IMG/VR virus record: IMGVR_UViG_3300021364_000046
Coordinates: 1 to 44,238 of that record
Origin: a virus
Strand: one strand, 5' to 3'
DNA: 44,238 nt
Part shown: positions 2,041 to 31,894 of the stretch, piece by piece
How the letters are laid out: each line of letters begins with the position of its first letter
Position numbering within the stretch: position 1 is the stretch's first letter
The notes under the pieces: model-generated
What the model saw: only the letters and a program-made list of their open reading frames with translations
What the model was told of the DNA's origin: nothing
The model's database searches: none
Translations under genes and position numbers: made by a program

Positions 2041-2074
2041 GGGGTGTGTTTCTTTGACTCTTATAGAATACATG

Positions 2075-2099
2075 AAAAAGGGGGGCATGGAAGCCCCCC
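2075..2099 (-). terminator. Intrinsic terminator after the ParB-like gene
   Basis: Minus strand: a perfect 7-bp stem GGGGGGC / GCCCCCC around a TTCCAT loop, followed immediately by TTTTT. It lies about 20 nt after the stop of the ParB-like gene, as expected for a Rho-independent terminator. Confidence 0.85.
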
Positions 2100-2119
2100 T
2101 GTGACACTTATTAATGTGG

Positions 2120-3217
2120 TCAGTTGAACCCACGGTTCCGACCAGACCAGGAGATAAGTTTGTGGATGTCCTCCACAGTGCTCTCCTGAGCAAATGTCAT
2201 ATGACGAGCATCAGGATGGTTCCACGAGAATACACGTCGTCCAAACGATGGTTGAATACCCACCGCTTCCATCACACGATCTTCAATCGATTGCATCTGG
2301 GTAGTCCAGAATGCGTTACGGTTGCTATTGAGCGTGTTCTTTTGTCCTTCAGGGGGAGCAACAGAGAAGATAATATGCAATGGTTTGTTCAATTGAACTG
2401 CCTGCCTATTAGCATTCAGAATACCACCAACACGCGACTCAAATTGTCCGCTGTTGATGTAGAGACAGAACTCTTCATCATTCTCCCAGATCTCTTCAAT
2501 CCAAGGATTGTCAGTTCGTTCAATCTTATCAAGGATGGCAACAGCACGGCGACCACTAATAGTGGTAAAACGATTGCCGTTGCTAACCTTGTTAGACATG
2601 GTGAACTCAACGAGGAGAGTATCTACAATTCTCTCACGTTGCTTGGGAGTAAAGTGTGTGCCCATGATATTAACACTGGCACGAACCTTATCCTCAGTAT
2701 AGATACCAGTTGCCTTGACAATCTCACGAGTGGATTGTTCAATGTCACCAACAGATGGGTTGGTGTGAGGCAACTCACTGATGACATTAGATGCATTAGC
2801 AAAGAGAATCTTTGCTTCAAGGTCACGGAACTTTACTCTTTGTACCATGTGACCTGGGATACCGCAGATATCATCTGCTTCAAGACGGTGATCACCATTG
2901 ACGCGATCGTCAGTGTCATCATCAATGTAGATAACTTCACCTTTTTCAAGGTCAATACCTACAGAACGATATGATTCAACAATATCGTTCACCTTCTTGA
3001 AGTTTGTACCATGGACACGACCAGGATTGATCCATGTCCTATTAATCATCTCCCTTAGAGTCATGTAGGGATCGCCAACTAGTTCAACGCCATCCACACC
3101 AAAGGTAGATGGTCGGTTCTTCCAGTTTCTGTGATCACAGCATTCAAGAGTCCAAATGTCGGTAACGAATTGTCCGAAACCTTCAAGGTTGGGAATGCCG
3201 AAAACAGTTTGTGTCAT
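2120..3217 (-). CDS. ParB-like N-terminal-domain protein, 365 aa
   Basis: Residues about 40-130 resemble the ParB/Srx-type domain. There is a VDGVELVGDP strand, a region that would set the helix, and the motif NGDHRLEA at about 107-114, close to the box II motif (G-x-H-R) of ParB-like nucleases/NTPases. The rest is of unknown fold and holds no partition-type helix-turn-helix that I can identify. A sigma70-like promoter lies in the end of the methyltransferase gene just upstream and a strong terminator follows, so it forms its own transcription unit next to the nuclease/methyltransferase pair. In phages ParB-like domains occur in DNA-modification and host-takeover proteins; the role here is inferred only from context. 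Confidence 0.6.
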   Translation of the reverse strand: MTQTVFGIPNLEGFGQFVTDIWTLECCDHRNWKNRPSTFGVDGVELVGDPYMTLREMINRTWINPGRVHGTNFKKVNDIVESYRSVGIDLEKGEVIYIDDDTDDRVNGDHRLEADDICGIPGHMVQRVKFRDLEAKILFANASNVISELPHTNPSVGDIEQSTREIVKATGIYTEDKVRASVNIMGTHFTPKQRERIVDTLLVEFTMSNKVSNGNRFTTISGRRAVAILDKIERTDNPWIEEIWENDEEFCLYINSGQFESRVGGILNANRQAVQLNKPLHIIFSVAPPEGQKNTLNSNRNAFWTTQMQSIEDRVMEAVGIQPSFGRRVFSWNHPDARHMTFAQESTVEDIHKLISWSGRNRGFN

Positions 3218-3261
3218 ATGTAATTACCGCTTCTCAAGAACGGTTCGAAGATTACGTTAAT

Positions 3262-3290
3262 AGTATAACAAGATCAGGAAGCAAAGTCAA
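3262..3290 (-). promoter_or_regulatory. Sigma70-type promoter of the ParB-like gene
   Basis: Minus strand: TTGACT (3290-3285), 17-bp spacer, TATACT (3267-3262), about 45 nt before the ATG at 3217. The -35 box and part of the spacer lie inside the last codons of the methyltransferase gene. Confidence 0.7.
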
Positions 3291-4038
3291 GCACGGAAAT
3301 CTCCGCTTTGATCCTTTGTTGCAATTTGTCATAGTATTCTTGGTCGCGCTCACAACCAATATACTTGCGACCTGCCCGCTTTGCAGCAATAGCAGTAGAC
3401 CCAGAACCCATGAAGATGTCTAACACAGTATCACCTGCATTAGTATATGCGCGGACAATGCGCTCCATCACCTCAAGATTCTTGGTAGTAGGATGCCAAC
3501 CACAATAATCTTTTGATGTAGTGTGGTTGTTCTTCTCCCAAATACATGTTGGGATGGTGCCCTGGGTGTAGTCTTTACCAGTGCGTAAGTTCTTCTTCAC
3601 CTTACGCTCAACACGAATCTCCGCATCATTGAACAAGAACTCTTTGCCCTTGGACCAACACCATGCATACTCATGTTTGCGAGCGAAGTTAGTCTTACTG
3701 CGTCCACCCCAGTTGTATCCCCAGATGATCTCATTCTGTGGTGTGAGCACAGCATGATTGTCTGTAGTCTGTAGTTTGTAGCGCAGGAATGTTTCAGTCT
3801 TGAGTGTACCCCACACAATGAACATGCGATTAGGTTTAAGTACACGGACACACTCTGATGTCCACTGCTCACACCAGTCAAGATAGTCGTGCTCACTATC
3901 CCACTGACTATCCCATCCCTTGCCACCATCAAATCCAATGAAGTATGGTGGATCTGTGACTACCAGATCCACACTATTATCCTCAAGAGTCTTGAGGTAA
4001 TCTAAACAATCTGATTGTACTACACTGCTTTCAGCCAT
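3274..4038 (-). CDS. DNA (adenine-N6 or cytosine-N4) methyltransferase, beta-class
   Basis: A 254-residue amino-methyltransferase. The catalytic motif IV DPPY is at residues 29-32. The SAM-binding motif I, DIFMGSGST, is near the C-terminus at about 207-215, followed by IGCERDQEYY. This order (IV before I) is the beta class of N6-adenine/N4-cytosine DNA methyltransferases. Length and motif spacing look complete. It starts inside the upstream nuclease-like gene (19-nt overlap, different frame), so the two are translated from one message. A methyltransferase alone could protect phage DNA from host enzymes; paired with a nuclease it suggests a phage-borne restriction-modification system. Target sequence cannot be deduced here. 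Confidence 0.9.
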   Translation of the reverse strand: MAESSVVQSDCLDYLKTLEDNSVDLVVTDPPYFIGFDGGKGWDSQWDSEHDYLDWCEQWTSECVRVLKPNRMFIVWGTLKTETFLRYKLQTTDNHAVLTPQNEIIWGYNWGGRSKTNFARKHEYAWCWSKGKEFLFNDAEIRVERKVKKNLRTGKDYTQGTIPTCIWEKNNHTTSKDYCGWHPTTKNLEVMERIVRAYTNAGDTVLDIFMGSGSTAIAAKRAGRKYIGCERDQEYYDKLQQRIKAEISVLDFAS

Positions 4039-4526
4039 TCAAAGTCGGAAGGGAATCCATCCAGGAAGTATGTCCCAGACTTCACTCGCTTCCCACCATG
4101 CTGGTTATAAATCCAGTTGCCTTTAGCATCCTGAACTTCTACTGCTTTACGAACAGTTTCTTTATCTGCTTCGTAAAACTCTACACGGTCAGGATACACA
4201 GCAATGAACACAACATCATCGTAATCCTGATCGGGACGAATCTGTTGCCAGCGGAAGTGTGTGCCATCACCCCAGAGAAAAGATCCTTTGATCTCTTTCT
4301 TACGGGAGTTACACTTACGGTCATGATTAGAGTTATCAGGTTTTTCAACCACGAAACCCTTACCAGTCATGTATTCCTCATACATGTACTCAAAATACTT
4401 ACCTTTCTTCTTAGAAGACAAGTCCTTCAACGTTTTGAAGGCAGAGTTGGTGTAAGGACACTTCGCTTTGTCAGCGGTGATCTCAGCAAAAGTCTGAGTG
4501 TTTACGAAATCGTTAGCGTTGAGCAT
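4020..4526 (-). CDS. PD-(D/E)XK-like restriction endonuclease candidate
   Basis: A 168-residue protein. After a helix containing KGKYFEYMYEEY (about 42-52) comes HDRKCNSRKKEIKGS, giving D69 and E78-x-K80, the spacing expected of a PD-(D/E)XK active site. A strand-rich part with FRWQQIRPDQDYDDVVFIAV follows. Its size fits small type II enzymes, and it directly overlaps a DNA methyltransferase, the usual partner. A good SD (AGGAG, about 9 nt from ATG) and its own sigma70 promoter (4559-4587) support strong expression. It might cut host DNA, exclude rival phages, or be a defective remnant. I did not recognise a specific restriction family, so the nuclease call rests on motif plus context. Confidence 0.65.
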   Translation of the reverse strand: MLNANDFVNTQTFAEITADKAKCPYTNSAFKTLKDLSSKKKGKYFEYMYEEYMTGKGFVVEKPDNSNHDRKCNSRKKEIKGSFLWGDGTHFRWQQIRPDQDYDDVVFIAVYPDRVEFYEADKETVRKAVEVQDAKGNWIYNQHGGKRVKSGTYFLDGFPSDFEWLKAV

Positions 4527-4558
4527 AACCTTGATCTCCTGAATTTGTTTACTCTGTT

Positions 4559-4587
4559 ATTATGGCATGAAAAAGGGGCACTGTCAA
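4559..4587 (-). promoter_or_regulatory. Sigma70 promoter of the restriction-modification pair
   Basis: Minus strand: perfect -35 TTGACA (4587-4582), 17-bp spacer, -10 CATAAT (4564-4559), about 33 nt before the ATG at 4526. The -35 hexamer is exactly the loop of the terminator hairpin at 4570-4594 and the terminator's T-tract lies in the spacer. Confidence 0.8.
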
Positions 4588-4594
4588 GCGCCCC
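4570..4594 (-). terminator. Intrinsic terminator overlapping a promoter
   Basis: Minus strand: stem GGGGCGC / GTGCCCC (7 pairs, one G-U) with loop TTGACA, then TTTTT at 4574-4570. It follows the stop of the 52-residue gene (4605) by 10 nt and is nested in the promoter of the next gene. Confidence 0.85.
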
Positions 4595-4604
4595 AACCAG
4601 TTCT

Positions 4605-4763
4605 TCAACTGTCACCAAAGATCGGGATGATGTCCGTCTTGGCATGTTCTGTTTTATTAATGTGCTGCTCCCACAGCGCGGCGTCTTCCAAATTGTAAAA
4701 GATCGCTTCTTGGCGGGCAGTGCCCTTCTTCTTGCTCTTCATCCACACAACTGCGTATTTCAT
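4605..4763 (-). CDS. Small hypothetical protein, 52 aa
   Basis: Starting at the ATG at 4763 (MKYAVVWMKSKKKGTARQEA) it has a basic N-terminal third and ends IIPIFGDS. The pattern of a beta strand, basic loop, and helix with paired tryptophan/aromatic residues looks like a real small domain. It overlaps the 3' end of the preceding gene by 107 nt in another frame, which is unusual; the frame is open to 4823. It is the last gene before a terminator. No function recognised. Confidence 0.6.
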   Translation of the reverse strand: MKYAVVWMKSKKKGTARQEAIFYNLEDAALWEQHINKTEHAKTDIIPIFGDS

Positions 4764-4944
4764 GCCAATATTCAGGATAAACGATAAGGTTAGCATAGTG
4801 ACGACCCCACCGTGAGTTTTCACTCGTGGGCAGTGGGATGTCTTTGAATACTATACTGATATAGTATTCACTAATGAAAGAAATGTAACCATATGTGCCA
4901 TGATAGCACACTGGTTGGAGTAATTCAAAGTCAGTCTGCTTCAT
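4657..4944 (-). CDS. Hypothetical protein, 95 aa, long 3' overlap
   Basis: The chosen start is the ATG at 4944 (MKQTDFELLQPV), which overlaps the previous stop by 14 nt and has GGAAAG about 9 nt upstream. The first 60 or so residues (through YANLIVYPEYWHEI) look like a conserved-type strand-rich domain. The remainder (CVDEEQEEGHCPPRS and on) lies in the part shared with the next gene and has odd composition, so the original stop may have been lost or a frameshift lies near 4760. A longer start at 5004 is less likely. Function unknown. Confidence 0.6.
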   Translation of the reverse strand: MKQTDFELLQPVCYHGTYGYISFISEYYISIVFKDIPLPTSENSRWGRHYANLIVYPEYWHEIRSCVDEEQEEGHCPPRSDLLQFGRRRAVGAAH

Positions 4945-30733: not shown

Positions 30734-30806
30734 CTCCTCCACCTGGGCTCGAACCAGGGACATGGTGATTAACAGTCACCCGCTCTACCGACTGAGCTAT
30801 AGAGGA
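30734..30806 (-). tRNA. tRNA-Asn (GTT)
   Basis: A cloverleaf can be drawn with acceptor TCCTCTA / TGGAGGA, D-arm AGCTCAGTCGGTAGAGC, anticodon GTT in loop CTGTTAA, and T-arm CTGG-TTCGAGC-CCAG. The 3' CCA is not encoded. It is the last of four tRNAs in the cassette. Confidence 0.9.
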
Positions 30807-30809
30807 ATG

Positions 30810-30825
30810 ATTCCCTTTCGGGAAT
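30810..30825 (-). other. GNRA-capped hairpin between tRNA-Ala and tRNA-Asn
   Basis: Minus strand ATTCCC-GAAA-GGGAAT is a perfect 6-bp stem with a GAAA tetraloop that fills nearly the whole spacer between the two tRNAs. It could be a processing or stability element of the tRNA precursor. Confidence 0.6.
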
Positions 30826-30897
30826 GGAGAATAGGAGACTCGAACTCCTGACAGCCTGCTTGCAAAGCAGGTGCTCTACCAACTGAGCTAATTCCCC
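30825..30897 (-). tRNA. tRNA-Ala (TGC)
   Basis: Cloverleaf with acceptor GGGGAAT / ATTCTCC (one G-U), D-arm AGCTCAGTTGGTAGAGC, anticodon TGC in loop TTTGCAA, T-arm AGGAG-TTCGAGT-CTCCT. CCA not encoded. Confidence 0.9.
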
Positions 30898-30900
30898 GAG

Positions 30901-30974
30901 AGCCACAAGTCGGACTTGAACCGACGACCTACGGTTTACAAAACCGTTGCTCTATCCAGCTGAGCTATAGTGGC
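30901..30974 (-). tRNA. tRNA-Thr (TGT)
   Basis: Cloverleaf with acceptor GCCACTA / TTGTGGC (one T-T mismatch near the base), anticodon TGT in loop TTTGTAA, T-arm GTCGG-TTCAAGT-CCGAC. CCA not encoded. It lies 11 nt downstream of the CpeT-like gene. Confidence 0.88.
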
Positions 30975-30985
30975 GAGAAGAGGCA

Positions 30986-31504
30986 TTACTGCCTTTTGAA
31001 TTTGAATGCTCCCCAATTTGAACCCCATACTTTCTCATGAGTTTCAGCATTCAAACCTTTGTCAAGAACTTGATAATCTCCCTCAGAGAGGATTACTTCG
31101 TTAGCAACATAGGTTTTAGTTCCTTGCCAATCTACCCAGCAATTACAGGTCGAAGTTCCGCCTTGATAAACTTTGTTTCCAACCTTCTTCATAATAATAT
31201 CACAACCTTCGCGGTAAGTCAAGATCTTATCAGAAATCCATTCTAAGTTCTTGCATTGTGCAAAGCGTTGTGCGTCTAAGATCTCATAATTTTTGAGACG
31301 ATAATCATCTCCCTCTTCTACAACATCAATAACAAACTGACGATATGGGCGATCGAGTTGGTAATTGTATGCTTGCTCACCGTAAATACGGGTTTCTCCA
31401 ATCAAACGGTGAGAGACTCGGATATGTGCATAACGAGTAGGGTGTGATTGTGCTTGTACTTTGTTCGAAAAAGTACCAACCAACAACTCAATAAATTCAC
31501 TCAT
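30986..31504 (-). CDS. cpeT: CpeT/CpcT-type phycobiliprotein lyase
   Basis: A 172-residue protein with the T-type lyase pattern: LLVGTFSNKVQAQSHPTRYA at the N-terminus, HIRVSHRLIG, then QAYNYQLDRPYRQFVIDV, a Cys-containing loop (GGTSTCNCWVDW) and a conserved-looking end (KVWGSNWGAFKFKRQ). T-type lyases attach bilin chromophores to phycobiliproteins of the light-harvesting antenna; phage versions are known in marine T4-like cyanophages and would act on host antenna proteins during infection. It is shorter than host proteins (about 200 aa), as phage copies usually are. Its ATG overlaps the stop of the preceding gene (ATGA). Confidence 0.85.
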   Translation of the reverse strand: MSEFIELLVGTFSNKVQAQSHPTRYAHIRVSHRLIGETRIYGEQAYNYQLDRPYRQFVIDVVEEGDDYRLKNYEILDAQRFAQCKNLEWISDKILTYREGCDIIMKKVGNKVYQGGTSTCNCWVDWQGTKTYVANEVILSEGDYQVLDKGLNAETHEKVWGSNWGAFKFKRQ

Positions 31505-31770
31505 TCTGGTATAAGTTCTGGATTAACGAGGTCTAATTCAAATAACACGGGATGGCATTCTTCAGCAATCAAATAATCAGAGAACCTGAACATGTCTTCC
31601 ATAGTATACTCTGGATTGATTGCTGCTTCTGACAATATCCACTTGTCTTCTTTCTCTTCTTTTTCAAGAATGTCAAAAGCAAACGGAATATTCTCAATAT
31701 AATACATCAATACAGGTTCGTTGTCAACAAATACATGCTTTCTAGTGATAGTGTATTTGAATTCTGCCAT
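31501..31770 (-). CDS. Small hypothetical protein coupled to CpeT, 89 aa
   Basis: An 89-residue acidic protein (MAEFKYTITRKHVFVDNEPV ... VNPELIPE) with no transmembrane segment. It ends in an ATGA overlap with CpeT, so the two are translated together, which may mean related roles. I recognise no family. It follows tRNA-Leu by about 40 nt. Confidence 0.7.
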   Translation of the reverse strand: MAEFKYTITRKHVFVDNEPVLMYYIENIPFAFDILEKEEKEDKWILSEAAINPEYTMEDMFRFSDYLIAEECHPVLFELDLVNPELIPE

Positions 31771-31809
31771 TTGCTTTGTCAGGGTTTGCCAATACTATTT
31801 AACAAGAAA

Positions 31810-31894
31810 TAGGACGAGCGGGACTTGAACCCGCACGATCTTTACAATCGACAGATTTTAAGTCTGGTGTGTCTACCAATTCCACCACCGTCCC
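31810..31894 (-). tRNA. tRNA-Leu (TAA)
   Basis: A class II tRNA with a long variable arm (TCGATTGTAAAGATCG), acceptor GGGACGG / TCGTCCT with two terminal G-U pairs, D-region TGGAATTGGTAGACAC, anticodon TAA in loop ACTTAAAAT, and T-arm GCGGG-TTCAAGT-CCCGC. CCA not encoded. Its 5' end directly follows the stop codon of the 41-residue gene. Confidence 0.9.

What the first reader, a model, noticed from the sequence alone, without database searches (positions are those of the whole stretch)
4559..4594. Terminator whose loop is the -35 box of the next promoter
The intrinsic terminator stem GGGGCGC / GTGCCCC encloses exactly TTGACA, which with a 17-bp spacer and CATAAT forms a near-perfect sigma70 promoter; the T-tract is in the spacer. 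One 36-bp element would both end the upstream operon and start the R-M-like one, and transcription of one may influence the other.
Basis: seen in the sequence. Interest (0 to 1): 0.7.

Follow-up and report, generated by a model that had tools for sequence, protein, structure and literature searches.

The report
Terminator loop carrying next promoter
In T4-like viruses of marine cyanobacteria, one 36-base DNA element looks built both to end one gene's transcript and to start the next, because the loop of the stop signal carries part of the next start signal, and gene cassettes appear to be swapped at such elements.

Summary
Window 4594-4559(-) reads GGGGCGC-TTGACA-GTGCCCC-TTTTT-CATGC-CATAAT: a strong terminator hairpin (-15 kcal/mol) whose loop is the -35 box of an 11/12 sigma70 promoter with a 17-bp spacer. 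A comparable element arose in 0 of 300 dinucleotide shuffles (strict) or 7 of 300 (loose). It is not unique. I collected 275 distinct elements, mostly between co-directional genes. In 353 terminators of nine cyanophage isolates the -35 sits on the hairpin centre 12 times against 0.81 expected. In coliphage RB49 it lies about 30 nt downstream, as in a classic PeSL promoter-terminator cassette. Here the element heads a type II R-M-like cassette. Five of six other contigs with that cassette lose homology just upstream of the element; the sixth shows an identity jump (72% to 96%) at it. Best reading: a fused PeSL-type junction that insulates, starts and swaps early-gene modules. No transcript ends were available; coupling between the two transcripts is untested.

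The parts
4595..4613 (-). conserved 5' flank of the element (..GAAGAACTGGTT)
   Evidence: the homology of 5 of 6 contigs carrying the same R-M genes starts at 4613 although their upstream genes differ; ACTGG is also kept in isolates S-WAM2, S-H9-1, Sf-CH11, S-CAM4, ACG-2014h and ACG-2014i
4588..4594 (-). 5' arm of the terminator stem, GGGGCGC
4582..4587 (-). TTGACA: hairpin loop and -35 box at once
   Evidence: positional enrichment
4575..4581 (-). 3' arm of the terminator stem, GTGCCCC
4570..4574 (-). T-tract; predicted 3' end of the upstream transcript (position inferred)
4559..4564 (-). -10 box CATAAT, 17-bp spacer, extended -10 TG at 4567-4566; TSS inferred near 4552
   Evidence: spacing conserved in relatives without having been asked for
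4536..4540 (-). ribosome-binding-site-like AGGAG before the ATG at 4526
   Evidence: read directly
4605..4787 (-). end of the upstream transcription unit: small gene of phrog_13220 / T4-GC_383, stop codon 10 nt before the hairpin (start codon uncertain)
4020..4526 (-). 168-aa type II restriction-endonuclease-like protein, first gene of the unit
   Evidence: PADLOC REase_II 4e-13; phrog_6927; no Pfam or NCBIfam hit
3274..4038 (-). N6/N4 DNA methyltransferase
   Evidence: PF01555 2e-51; PADLOC MTase_II
2120..3217 (-). 365-aa protein of unknown family, third gene of the cassette
   Evidence: no family above a cut-off
2079..2100 (-). second hairpin closing the cassette, AGGGGGGC-TTCCAT-GCCCCCCT-TTTTCATG: same layout, but its loop is not a good -35

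Best explanation
The element is a fused promoter-terminator module junction, a compact variant of the PeSL cassettes of T4-type phages. RNA from the upstream early genes folds the GC-rich hairpin and is released on the T-tract. The DNA of the same hairpin loop is the -35 box from which unmodified host sigma70 RNA polymerase starts the next unit, here a type II R-M-like cassette. The terminator's 3' arm and T-tract fit inside the obligatory 17-bp promoter spacer, so both signals fit in 36 bp. Because each module carries its own start signal and is sealed from its neighbour, modules can be exchanged at these junctions without disturbing neighbouring expression, and the recurrent core (G-run, TTGACA, C-run, T-run, -10) offers a place for recombination. 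Shown by sequence: structure, spacing, compensatory change, position between co-directional genes, cassette breakpoints. Inferred: actual termination, initiation, early timing, and that recombination rather than selection set the breakpoints.
For: (1) Anatomy and chance. (2) Position: -35 boxes of promoters scoring at least 10/12 fall on the hairpin centre 12 times in 353 terminators of nine cyanophage isolates, against 0.81 per 6-nt bin elsewhere, Poisson P about 8e-11. (3) Loop identity: 68 of 120 TTGACA matches and 55 of 61 in the CATG subfamily have the hairpin, against 1 of 92 with the scrambled hexamer. The exact hairpin context gives at least 120 IMG/VR contigs with TTGACA and 0 with ACAGTT. 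(4) Spacing without asking for a -10: a -10 of at least 5/6 stands at spacer 17 in 57 of 75 and 39 of 94 distinct hairpin elements, plus 16 of 94 at spacer 16. (5) Structure kept while sequence changes: 155 arm pairs in 228 distinct elements; AGGAGGGC-TTGAT-GCCCTCCT in S-H9-1 against AGGAGGGG-TTGAT-CCCCTCCT in S-WAM2. (6) Placement: upstream gene co-directional in 200 of 261, ending a median 16 nt before the hairpin; downstream gene co-directional in 212 of 263. (7) Exchange: the same upstream gene is followed by different cassettes in the isolates. The same RE/MTase genes follow different upstream genes, with homology starting at 4613 in 5 of 6 contigs. L127 is 71.8% identical upstream and 95.8% downstream of the hairpin. 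Segment 2041-4616 is absent from Sf-CH1b. (8) Host sigma70 use: cyanomyoviruses lack alt, modA and modB (passage of PMC2984593).
Against: No transcript data: neither a 3' end nor a TSS has been seen here or in any relative. Three of nine cyanophage isolates (Syn9, S-TIM5, S-CRM01) have no such element, nor has Pelagibacter phage HTVC008M. At the orthologous site S-CAM4, ACG-2014h and ACG-2014i keep the promoter but have lost the T-tract, and L650/L651 keep the hairpin and -10 but have no TTGACA, so the fusion is dispensable. The second hairpin of the cassette (2100-2079) has a poor -35. 34 of 261 elements have an upstream gene on the other strand, where no terminator is needed in that direction. 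Non-hairpin TTGACA matches have -10 boxes too (22 of 30 and 7 of 16), so a hairpin is not needed for a promoter.
Confidence: 0.8

Rival explanations
1. Polymerase hand-over. After releasing the upstream RNA at the T-tract, the RNA polymerase stays on the DNA, already lying over the -35/-10 region, picks up or keeps sigma, and restarts at the fused promoter. Upstream transcription would then feed downstream initiation. This is an addition to the best explanation, not an alternative to it.
For: Intrinsic termination leaves E. coli RNAP on DNA, where it slides and can reinitiate at nearby promoters (passages of PMC6978380). A later paper argues for facilitated reinitiation at the nearest promoter and says the process has not been demonstrated in vivo (passages of PMC11347151). 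In the fused geometry the termination point lies about 18 nt before the inferred TSS, near zero distance. Co-directional order fits.
Against: No measurement. Reinitiation in those papers works over hundreds of bp, so adjacent PeSLs as in RB49 should profit too and fusion is not required. The elements often begin foreign cassettes, which argues for insulation rather than coordination.
Confidence: 0.15
2. Interference. A polymerase terminating on, or reading through, the element covers the core promoter and represses it; in return a polymerase bound at the promoter blocks the upstream one. Downstream genes come on fully only when upstream transcription falls.
For: Geometry only: the T-tract lies between -35 and -10. 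Promoter occlusion is established in general (recalled).
Against: No expression data. A terminator would shorten any occupancy by the upstream polymerase.
Confidence: 0.1
3. Terminator only. The hairpin ends the upstream unit and the promoter match is decayed or unused.
For: The window's second hairpin (2100-2079) and L650/L651 show hairpins without a good -35.
Against: A -10 at spacer 17 is strongly enriched when not asked for, and the -35 is centred on the hairpin far above chance.
Confidence: 0.05
4. Promoter only. The inverted repeat is not a terminator but a DNA feature, such as a protein-binding palindrome or a recombination site.
For: Breakpoints fall at the element; some relatives have lost the T-tract.
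Against: The T-tract directly follows a GC-rich stem whose sequence varies freely while pairing is kept, which is odd for a protein site. The upstream stop codon lies a median 16 nt before it.
Confidence: 0.04
5. Coincidence in one genome.
For: Single promoter- or terminator-like sites are no more frequent than in shuffles.
Against: 0 of 300 shuffles at strict thresholds, and recurrence with a scrambled-loop control.
Confidence: 0.01

Closest known systems
PeSL (promoter-early stem-loop) cassettes of T4-type phages: Arbiol et al. 2010, Comeau et al. 2014 (both not held, recalled; cited in passages of PMC4503421)
   Same: Composite of a sigma70-type early promoter and an intrinsic terminator, between early genes, at points where modules are swapped.
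   Different: In RB49, the PeSL model phage (recalled), the -35 lies about 30 nt downstream of the hairpin centre (8 of 53 terminators) and never in the loop at 10/12. Here terminator and promoter overlap and share the loop.
Separate host-like early promoter and stem-loops noted in cyanophage S-PM2 (passage of PMC4503421)
   Same: Authors looked for PeSL-like parts in a cyanomyovirus.
   Different: They report a promoter and stem-loops at separate places and call the case distinct from PeSLs; the passage does not mention a -35 inside a loop. I find two fused elements in S-PM2, at other sites.
HGTV-1 archaeal-virus motif with TATA-like box and inverted repeat (passage of PMC3950731)
   Same: Repeated motif joining a promoter and an inverted repeat, compared by its authors to PeSLs.
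   Different: Archaeal promoter type; no -35 in a terminator loop is mentioned.
E. coli frd terminator / ampC promoter region overlap (recalled, not looked up)
   Same: A terminator and a promoter share DNA between neighbouring operons.
   Different: Single case, different geometry, no recurrence as a family (recalled).

Membership tests
PeSL (T4-type promoter-early stem-loop cassette); defining features recalled | intrinsic-terminator-like stem-loop | tested here: met
PeSL (T4-type promoter-early stem-loop cassette); defining features recalled | strong sigma70-like early promoter in the same small cassette | tested here: met
   11/12 match with 17-bp spacer; early timing not testable
PeSL (T4-type promoter-early stem-loop cassette); defining features recalled | terminator followed by an adjacent, separate promoter, as measured here in RB49 | tested here: not met
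   the -35 is inside the loop here; in RB49 it is about +30 nt
PeSL (T4-type promoter-early stem-loop cassette); defining features recalled | many copies per genome in hyperplastic regions | tested here: inconclusive
   2-4 per genome in 6 of 9 cyanophage isolates, 0 in 3; the window is only 44 kb
PeSL (T4-type promoter-early stem-loop cassette); defining features recalled | point of modular exchange | tested here: met
   (by sequence comparison, not by a cross)
PeSL (T4-type promoter-early stem-loop cassette); defining features recalled | terminator shown effective by experiment | not testable with these tools
   no expression data
Type II restriction-modification cassette (downstream genes) | restriction endonuclease gene next to a DNA methyltransferase gene | tested here: met
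   PADLOC REase_II 4e-13 and MTase_II 5e-53, by sequence only
Type II restriction-modification cassette (downstream genes) | cleavage and protection of the same DNA site | not testable with these tools
   no activity data

The most novel reading that the evidence does not exclude
The fused geometry is selected because it hands the polymerase over. The complex that has just ended the upstream RNA is left lying on the next promoter and restarts there, so a phage early region is read as a relay by recycled host RNA polymerases. This would be the first natural element built for post-termination recycling.
Probability: 0.12. Interest if true: 0.9.

Novelty: new variant of a known kind. Interest (0 to 1): 0.62.

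Why it matters
It gives T4-like cyanophages, among the most abundant viruses of the surface ocean (recalled), a concrete and recognisable junction at which early-gene modules start, stop and are exchanged, including nuclease-methyltransferase cassettes. It also supplies a large set (275 distinct here) of natural terminator-promoter fusions on which post-termination RNA polymerase recycling, shown in vitro and described as not yet demonstrated in vivo (PMC11347151 passage), could be tested directly.

Tried and rejected
Rfam: no family at the element or its relatives; the only matches are four tRNAs in the window. This covers the conserved leader ATGGGAGAGG(C/A)AGCGCCCTAAAGACTCC behind the promoter in S-CAM4, ACG-2014h and ACG-2014i, which remains unexplained.

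Terminator-like hairpin as chance: rejected. My first null tests were weak. In one search permuting upstream flanks still gave 16-18 hairpins against 53 of 123 matches (five permutations). In one search the loose RNAfold test gave 99 of 119 against 53-67 of 119 in ten shuffles. The scrambled-hexamer controls are sharper: 1 of 92, and 0.

T4 and KVP40 as comparators are imperfect, because T4 early promoters have GTTTAC rather than TTGACA at -35 (passage of PMC1524935). With TTTACT or TTTACA as -35 they still show 0 on the hairpin centre. RB49 is the fair comparator.

Homology of the third cassette gene: the window's 365-aa protein is not detectably related to the 331- and 339-aa proteins at the same place in L649 and L650 (blastp E 0.94 at best).

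PDB sequence search with the endonuclease-like protein: no hit better than E 0.89. No structure was predicted.

Papers: Arbiol 2010 and Comeau 2014 are not in the library, so what the PeSL papers say about loop sequences is recalled or second-hand. The searches listed no paper that I recognised as describing a -35 box inside a terminator loop in a cyanophage. I read listings and passages only, not whole papers, so this is weak evidence of absence.

Searches gave no such notice. Near-duplicates were removed (spacing count), not. The pair counts are on elements chosen for pairing, so the percentage paired means little there; the variety of pairs and the unasked-for -10 spacing are what count. 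One search kept only elements with a hairpin and a -10 of at least 4/6. The reference panel used to judge kinship is mostly T4-like phages, so 'best match' is biased.

Full report
OBSERVATION. On the minus strand, window 4594-4559 reads GGGGCGC TTGACA GTGCCCC TTTTT CATGC CATAAT. The hairpin folds at -15 kcal/mol, with 0 of 200 shuffles as stable. Its loop is a perfect -35 box, the -10 is 5 of 6, the spacer is 17, and there is an extended -10 TG. The upstream gene stops 10 nt before the hairpin; an AGGAG and the ATG of the next gene follow 18 and 32 nt after the -10 (read). Single promoter-like or terminator-like matches in the first 20 kb are at background (48 against 51.4; 16 against 11.8). 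The joint element occurs once in the window; 300 dinucleotide shuffles gave one in 7 shuffles (loose thresholds) and in none (strict).

ORTHOLOGOUS SITE. Eight cyanophage isolates matched by blastn were fetched. At the site behind the same small gene (T4-GC_383, phrog_13220), three keep the full element with a different stem: S-WAM2 GGGGCG-CTTGACAC-CGCCCC, S-H9-1 AGGGGGT-TGACAC-ACCCCCT, Sf-CH11 GGGGTCT-TGAC-AGACCCC. S-PM2 has a weaker -35 (TTGCTA) in the loop. S-CAM4, ACG-2014h and ACG-2014i keep a promoter but no T-tract, and Sf-CH1b has no element.

HOW COMMON. In whole genomes read in pieces I listed terminators and asked whether the loop held a -35 of a promoter scoring at least 9/12. Elements of terminators: S-H9-1 3 of 35, Sf-CH11 3 of 33, S-PM2 2 of 48, P-SSM2 3 of 51, S-WAM2 3 of 39, ACG-2014i 4 of 38, the window 1 of 5; Syn9 0 of 33, S-TIM5 0 of 42, S-CRM01 0 of 34. 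Outside: T4 1 of 50 and RB49 1 of 53 (both weak, below 10/12), KVP40 0 of 96, HTVC008M 0 of 15, HTVC010P 1 of 7 (AT-rich stem), P-SSP7 0 of 8. The position profile is the cleanest control. In 353 terminators of the nine cyanophage isolates, promoters of at least 10/12 have the -35 on the hairpin centre 12 times, against 0.81 per equal bin elsewhere, Poisson P about 8e-11. In T4, RB49 and KVP40 together (199 terminators) that bin is empty and the peak is at +30 (9). RB49 alone has 8 of 53 at +30.

CONTROLS IN IMG/VR. TTGACA followed by a T-tract and a -10 at the right distance: 68 of 120 matches have the hairpin. The same pattern with ACAGTT: 1 of 92. The TTTTTCATG subfamily: 55 of 61. GGGGNNTTGACANNCCCCTTTTT: at least 120 contigs; with ACAGTT 0; in 257 Gb of bacterial and archaeal genomes 7, of which 5 have a -10 at 16-18. 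Without asking for a -10, it stands at spacer 17 in 57 of 75 and 39 of 94 hairpin elements (and at 16 in 16 of 94). Stems vary widely: 155 arm pairs in 228 distinct elements. Of 122 contigs carrying the strict hairpin, 116 have best protein matches of at least 200 bits to cyanophage or HTVC008M references, 2 to KVP40, 2 weak, 2 none (the panel is biased to T4-like phages). Among 275 distinct elements the upstream gene is co-directional in 200, opposite in 34, uncalled in 27 of 261 examined; downstream 212, 43 and 8 of 263.

A SWAP POINT. Behind the same gene and the same kind of junction lie different cassettes: here an endonuclease-like protein, a PF01555 methyltransferase and a 365-aa protein; in S-WAM2 a 188-aa protein and a D12 methyltransferase; in Sf-CH11 a protein annotated GIY-YIG and a D12 methyltransferase; in S-PM2 a relative of that first protein (38% identity); in S-H9-1 and ACG-2014h a shared 257-aa protein (90% identity); in S-CAM4 and ACG-2014i further proteins. 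The two D12 methyltransferases are distantly alike (21%), so not all cassettes are unrelated. Conversely, the endonuclease gene of the window was found in six other IMG/VR contigs. In five of them DNA homology to the window starts at 4613, just before the element, and the upstream genes differ: a helicase in L649, other sequence in L647/L648 and in L650/L651. In the sixth, L127, the upstream gene is shared but the upstream stretch is only 71.8% identical (398 of 554), against 95.8% downstream (735 of 767), with 98-100% over 4537-3938; the change falls in the hairpin. Sf-CH1b lacks 2041-4616, and both ends of that segment lie within 40 nt of a hairpin: 4594-4575 and the related 2100-2079. In L649 and L650 a second hairpin also follows the third cassette gene; L651 has the same second hairpin, but I did not list its genes. 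The second hairpins differ in how good their -35 is.

THE CASSETTE. The first gene matches PADLOC REase_II (4e-13), the second MTase_II (5e-53) and PF01555 (2e-51). So 'R-M-like' is fair; activity is not tested.

MECHANISM. Cyanomyoviruses lack alt, modA and modB, so their early genes are thought to use unmodified host sigma70 polymerase (passage of PMC2984593); that suits a consensus promoter. The simplest working model is insulation plus initiation in one 36-bp junction: the terminator's 3' arm and T-tract fit in the 17-bp spacer, and the loop is the -35. Compensatory stem changes argue that the hairpin works as RNA; the conserved loop and -10 spacing argue that the DNA works as a promoter. 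Exchange at the junction is supported by breakpoints but not proved to be caused by it. Coupling is open: hand-over of the terminated polymerase (PMC6978380 and PMC11347151, passages) and interference predict opposite signs.

COMPARISON. It works like a PeSL, and sits in the same phage superfamily, but the adjacent layout measured in RB49 is not met, so I call it a fused variant rather than a member. The PeSL papers themselves could not be read.

VERDICT. Real, recurrent and largely lineage-restricted: a new variant of a known kind. Interest 0.62; with polymerase hand-over, 0.9.

Noticed in passing
S-H9-1 L163:17953(-), Sf-CH11 L186:8101(+), S-PM2 L193:18888(+), Syn9 L218:8323(+), S-WAM2 L227:19862(+): A recurring site with promoter TTGCCA-18-TATA(C/A)T whose -35 lies about 36 nt upstream of a terminator hairpin (GGGGGTC..GACCCTC TTTTTT): the transcript would be only some 35-40 nt long, a tiny RNA or an attenuator.
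   Followed up: no
IMG/VR loci such as L031, L036, L047, L049, L071, L085, L092, L114: A second class: GGGGGTAACTGGCAAAATCCAGTTGACACCCCCCTTTTTT..TATAAT, where an inner hairpin takes in the first T's of the -35 inside the outer terminator stem; often preceded by ATATCGTCGCCGC. Not found in the isolate genomes read.
   Followed up: partly
L005, L007, L008 (S-CAM4, ACG-2014h, ACG-2014i), just after the orthologous promoter: A conserved leader ATGGGAGAGG(C/A)AGCGCCCTAAAGACTCC in front of differing genes; no Rfam match.
   Followed up: partly
L649:3836-4831 and L650:3551-4570: Third gene of the R-M-like cassette with a VDGQHK / IDGQHK motif (39.8% identical to each other), replaced in the window by a 365-aa protein with no detectable similarity.
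   Followed up: partly
L654 (Thermoflexus sp.), L656 (Lachnospiraceae), L655, L658, L652: Five of seven prokaryote-genome matches to the TTGACA-loop terminator also have a -10 at the right distance; chance, prophage or independent use.
   Followed up: no
window 30734-31894 (-): Four tRNA genes.
   Followed up: no
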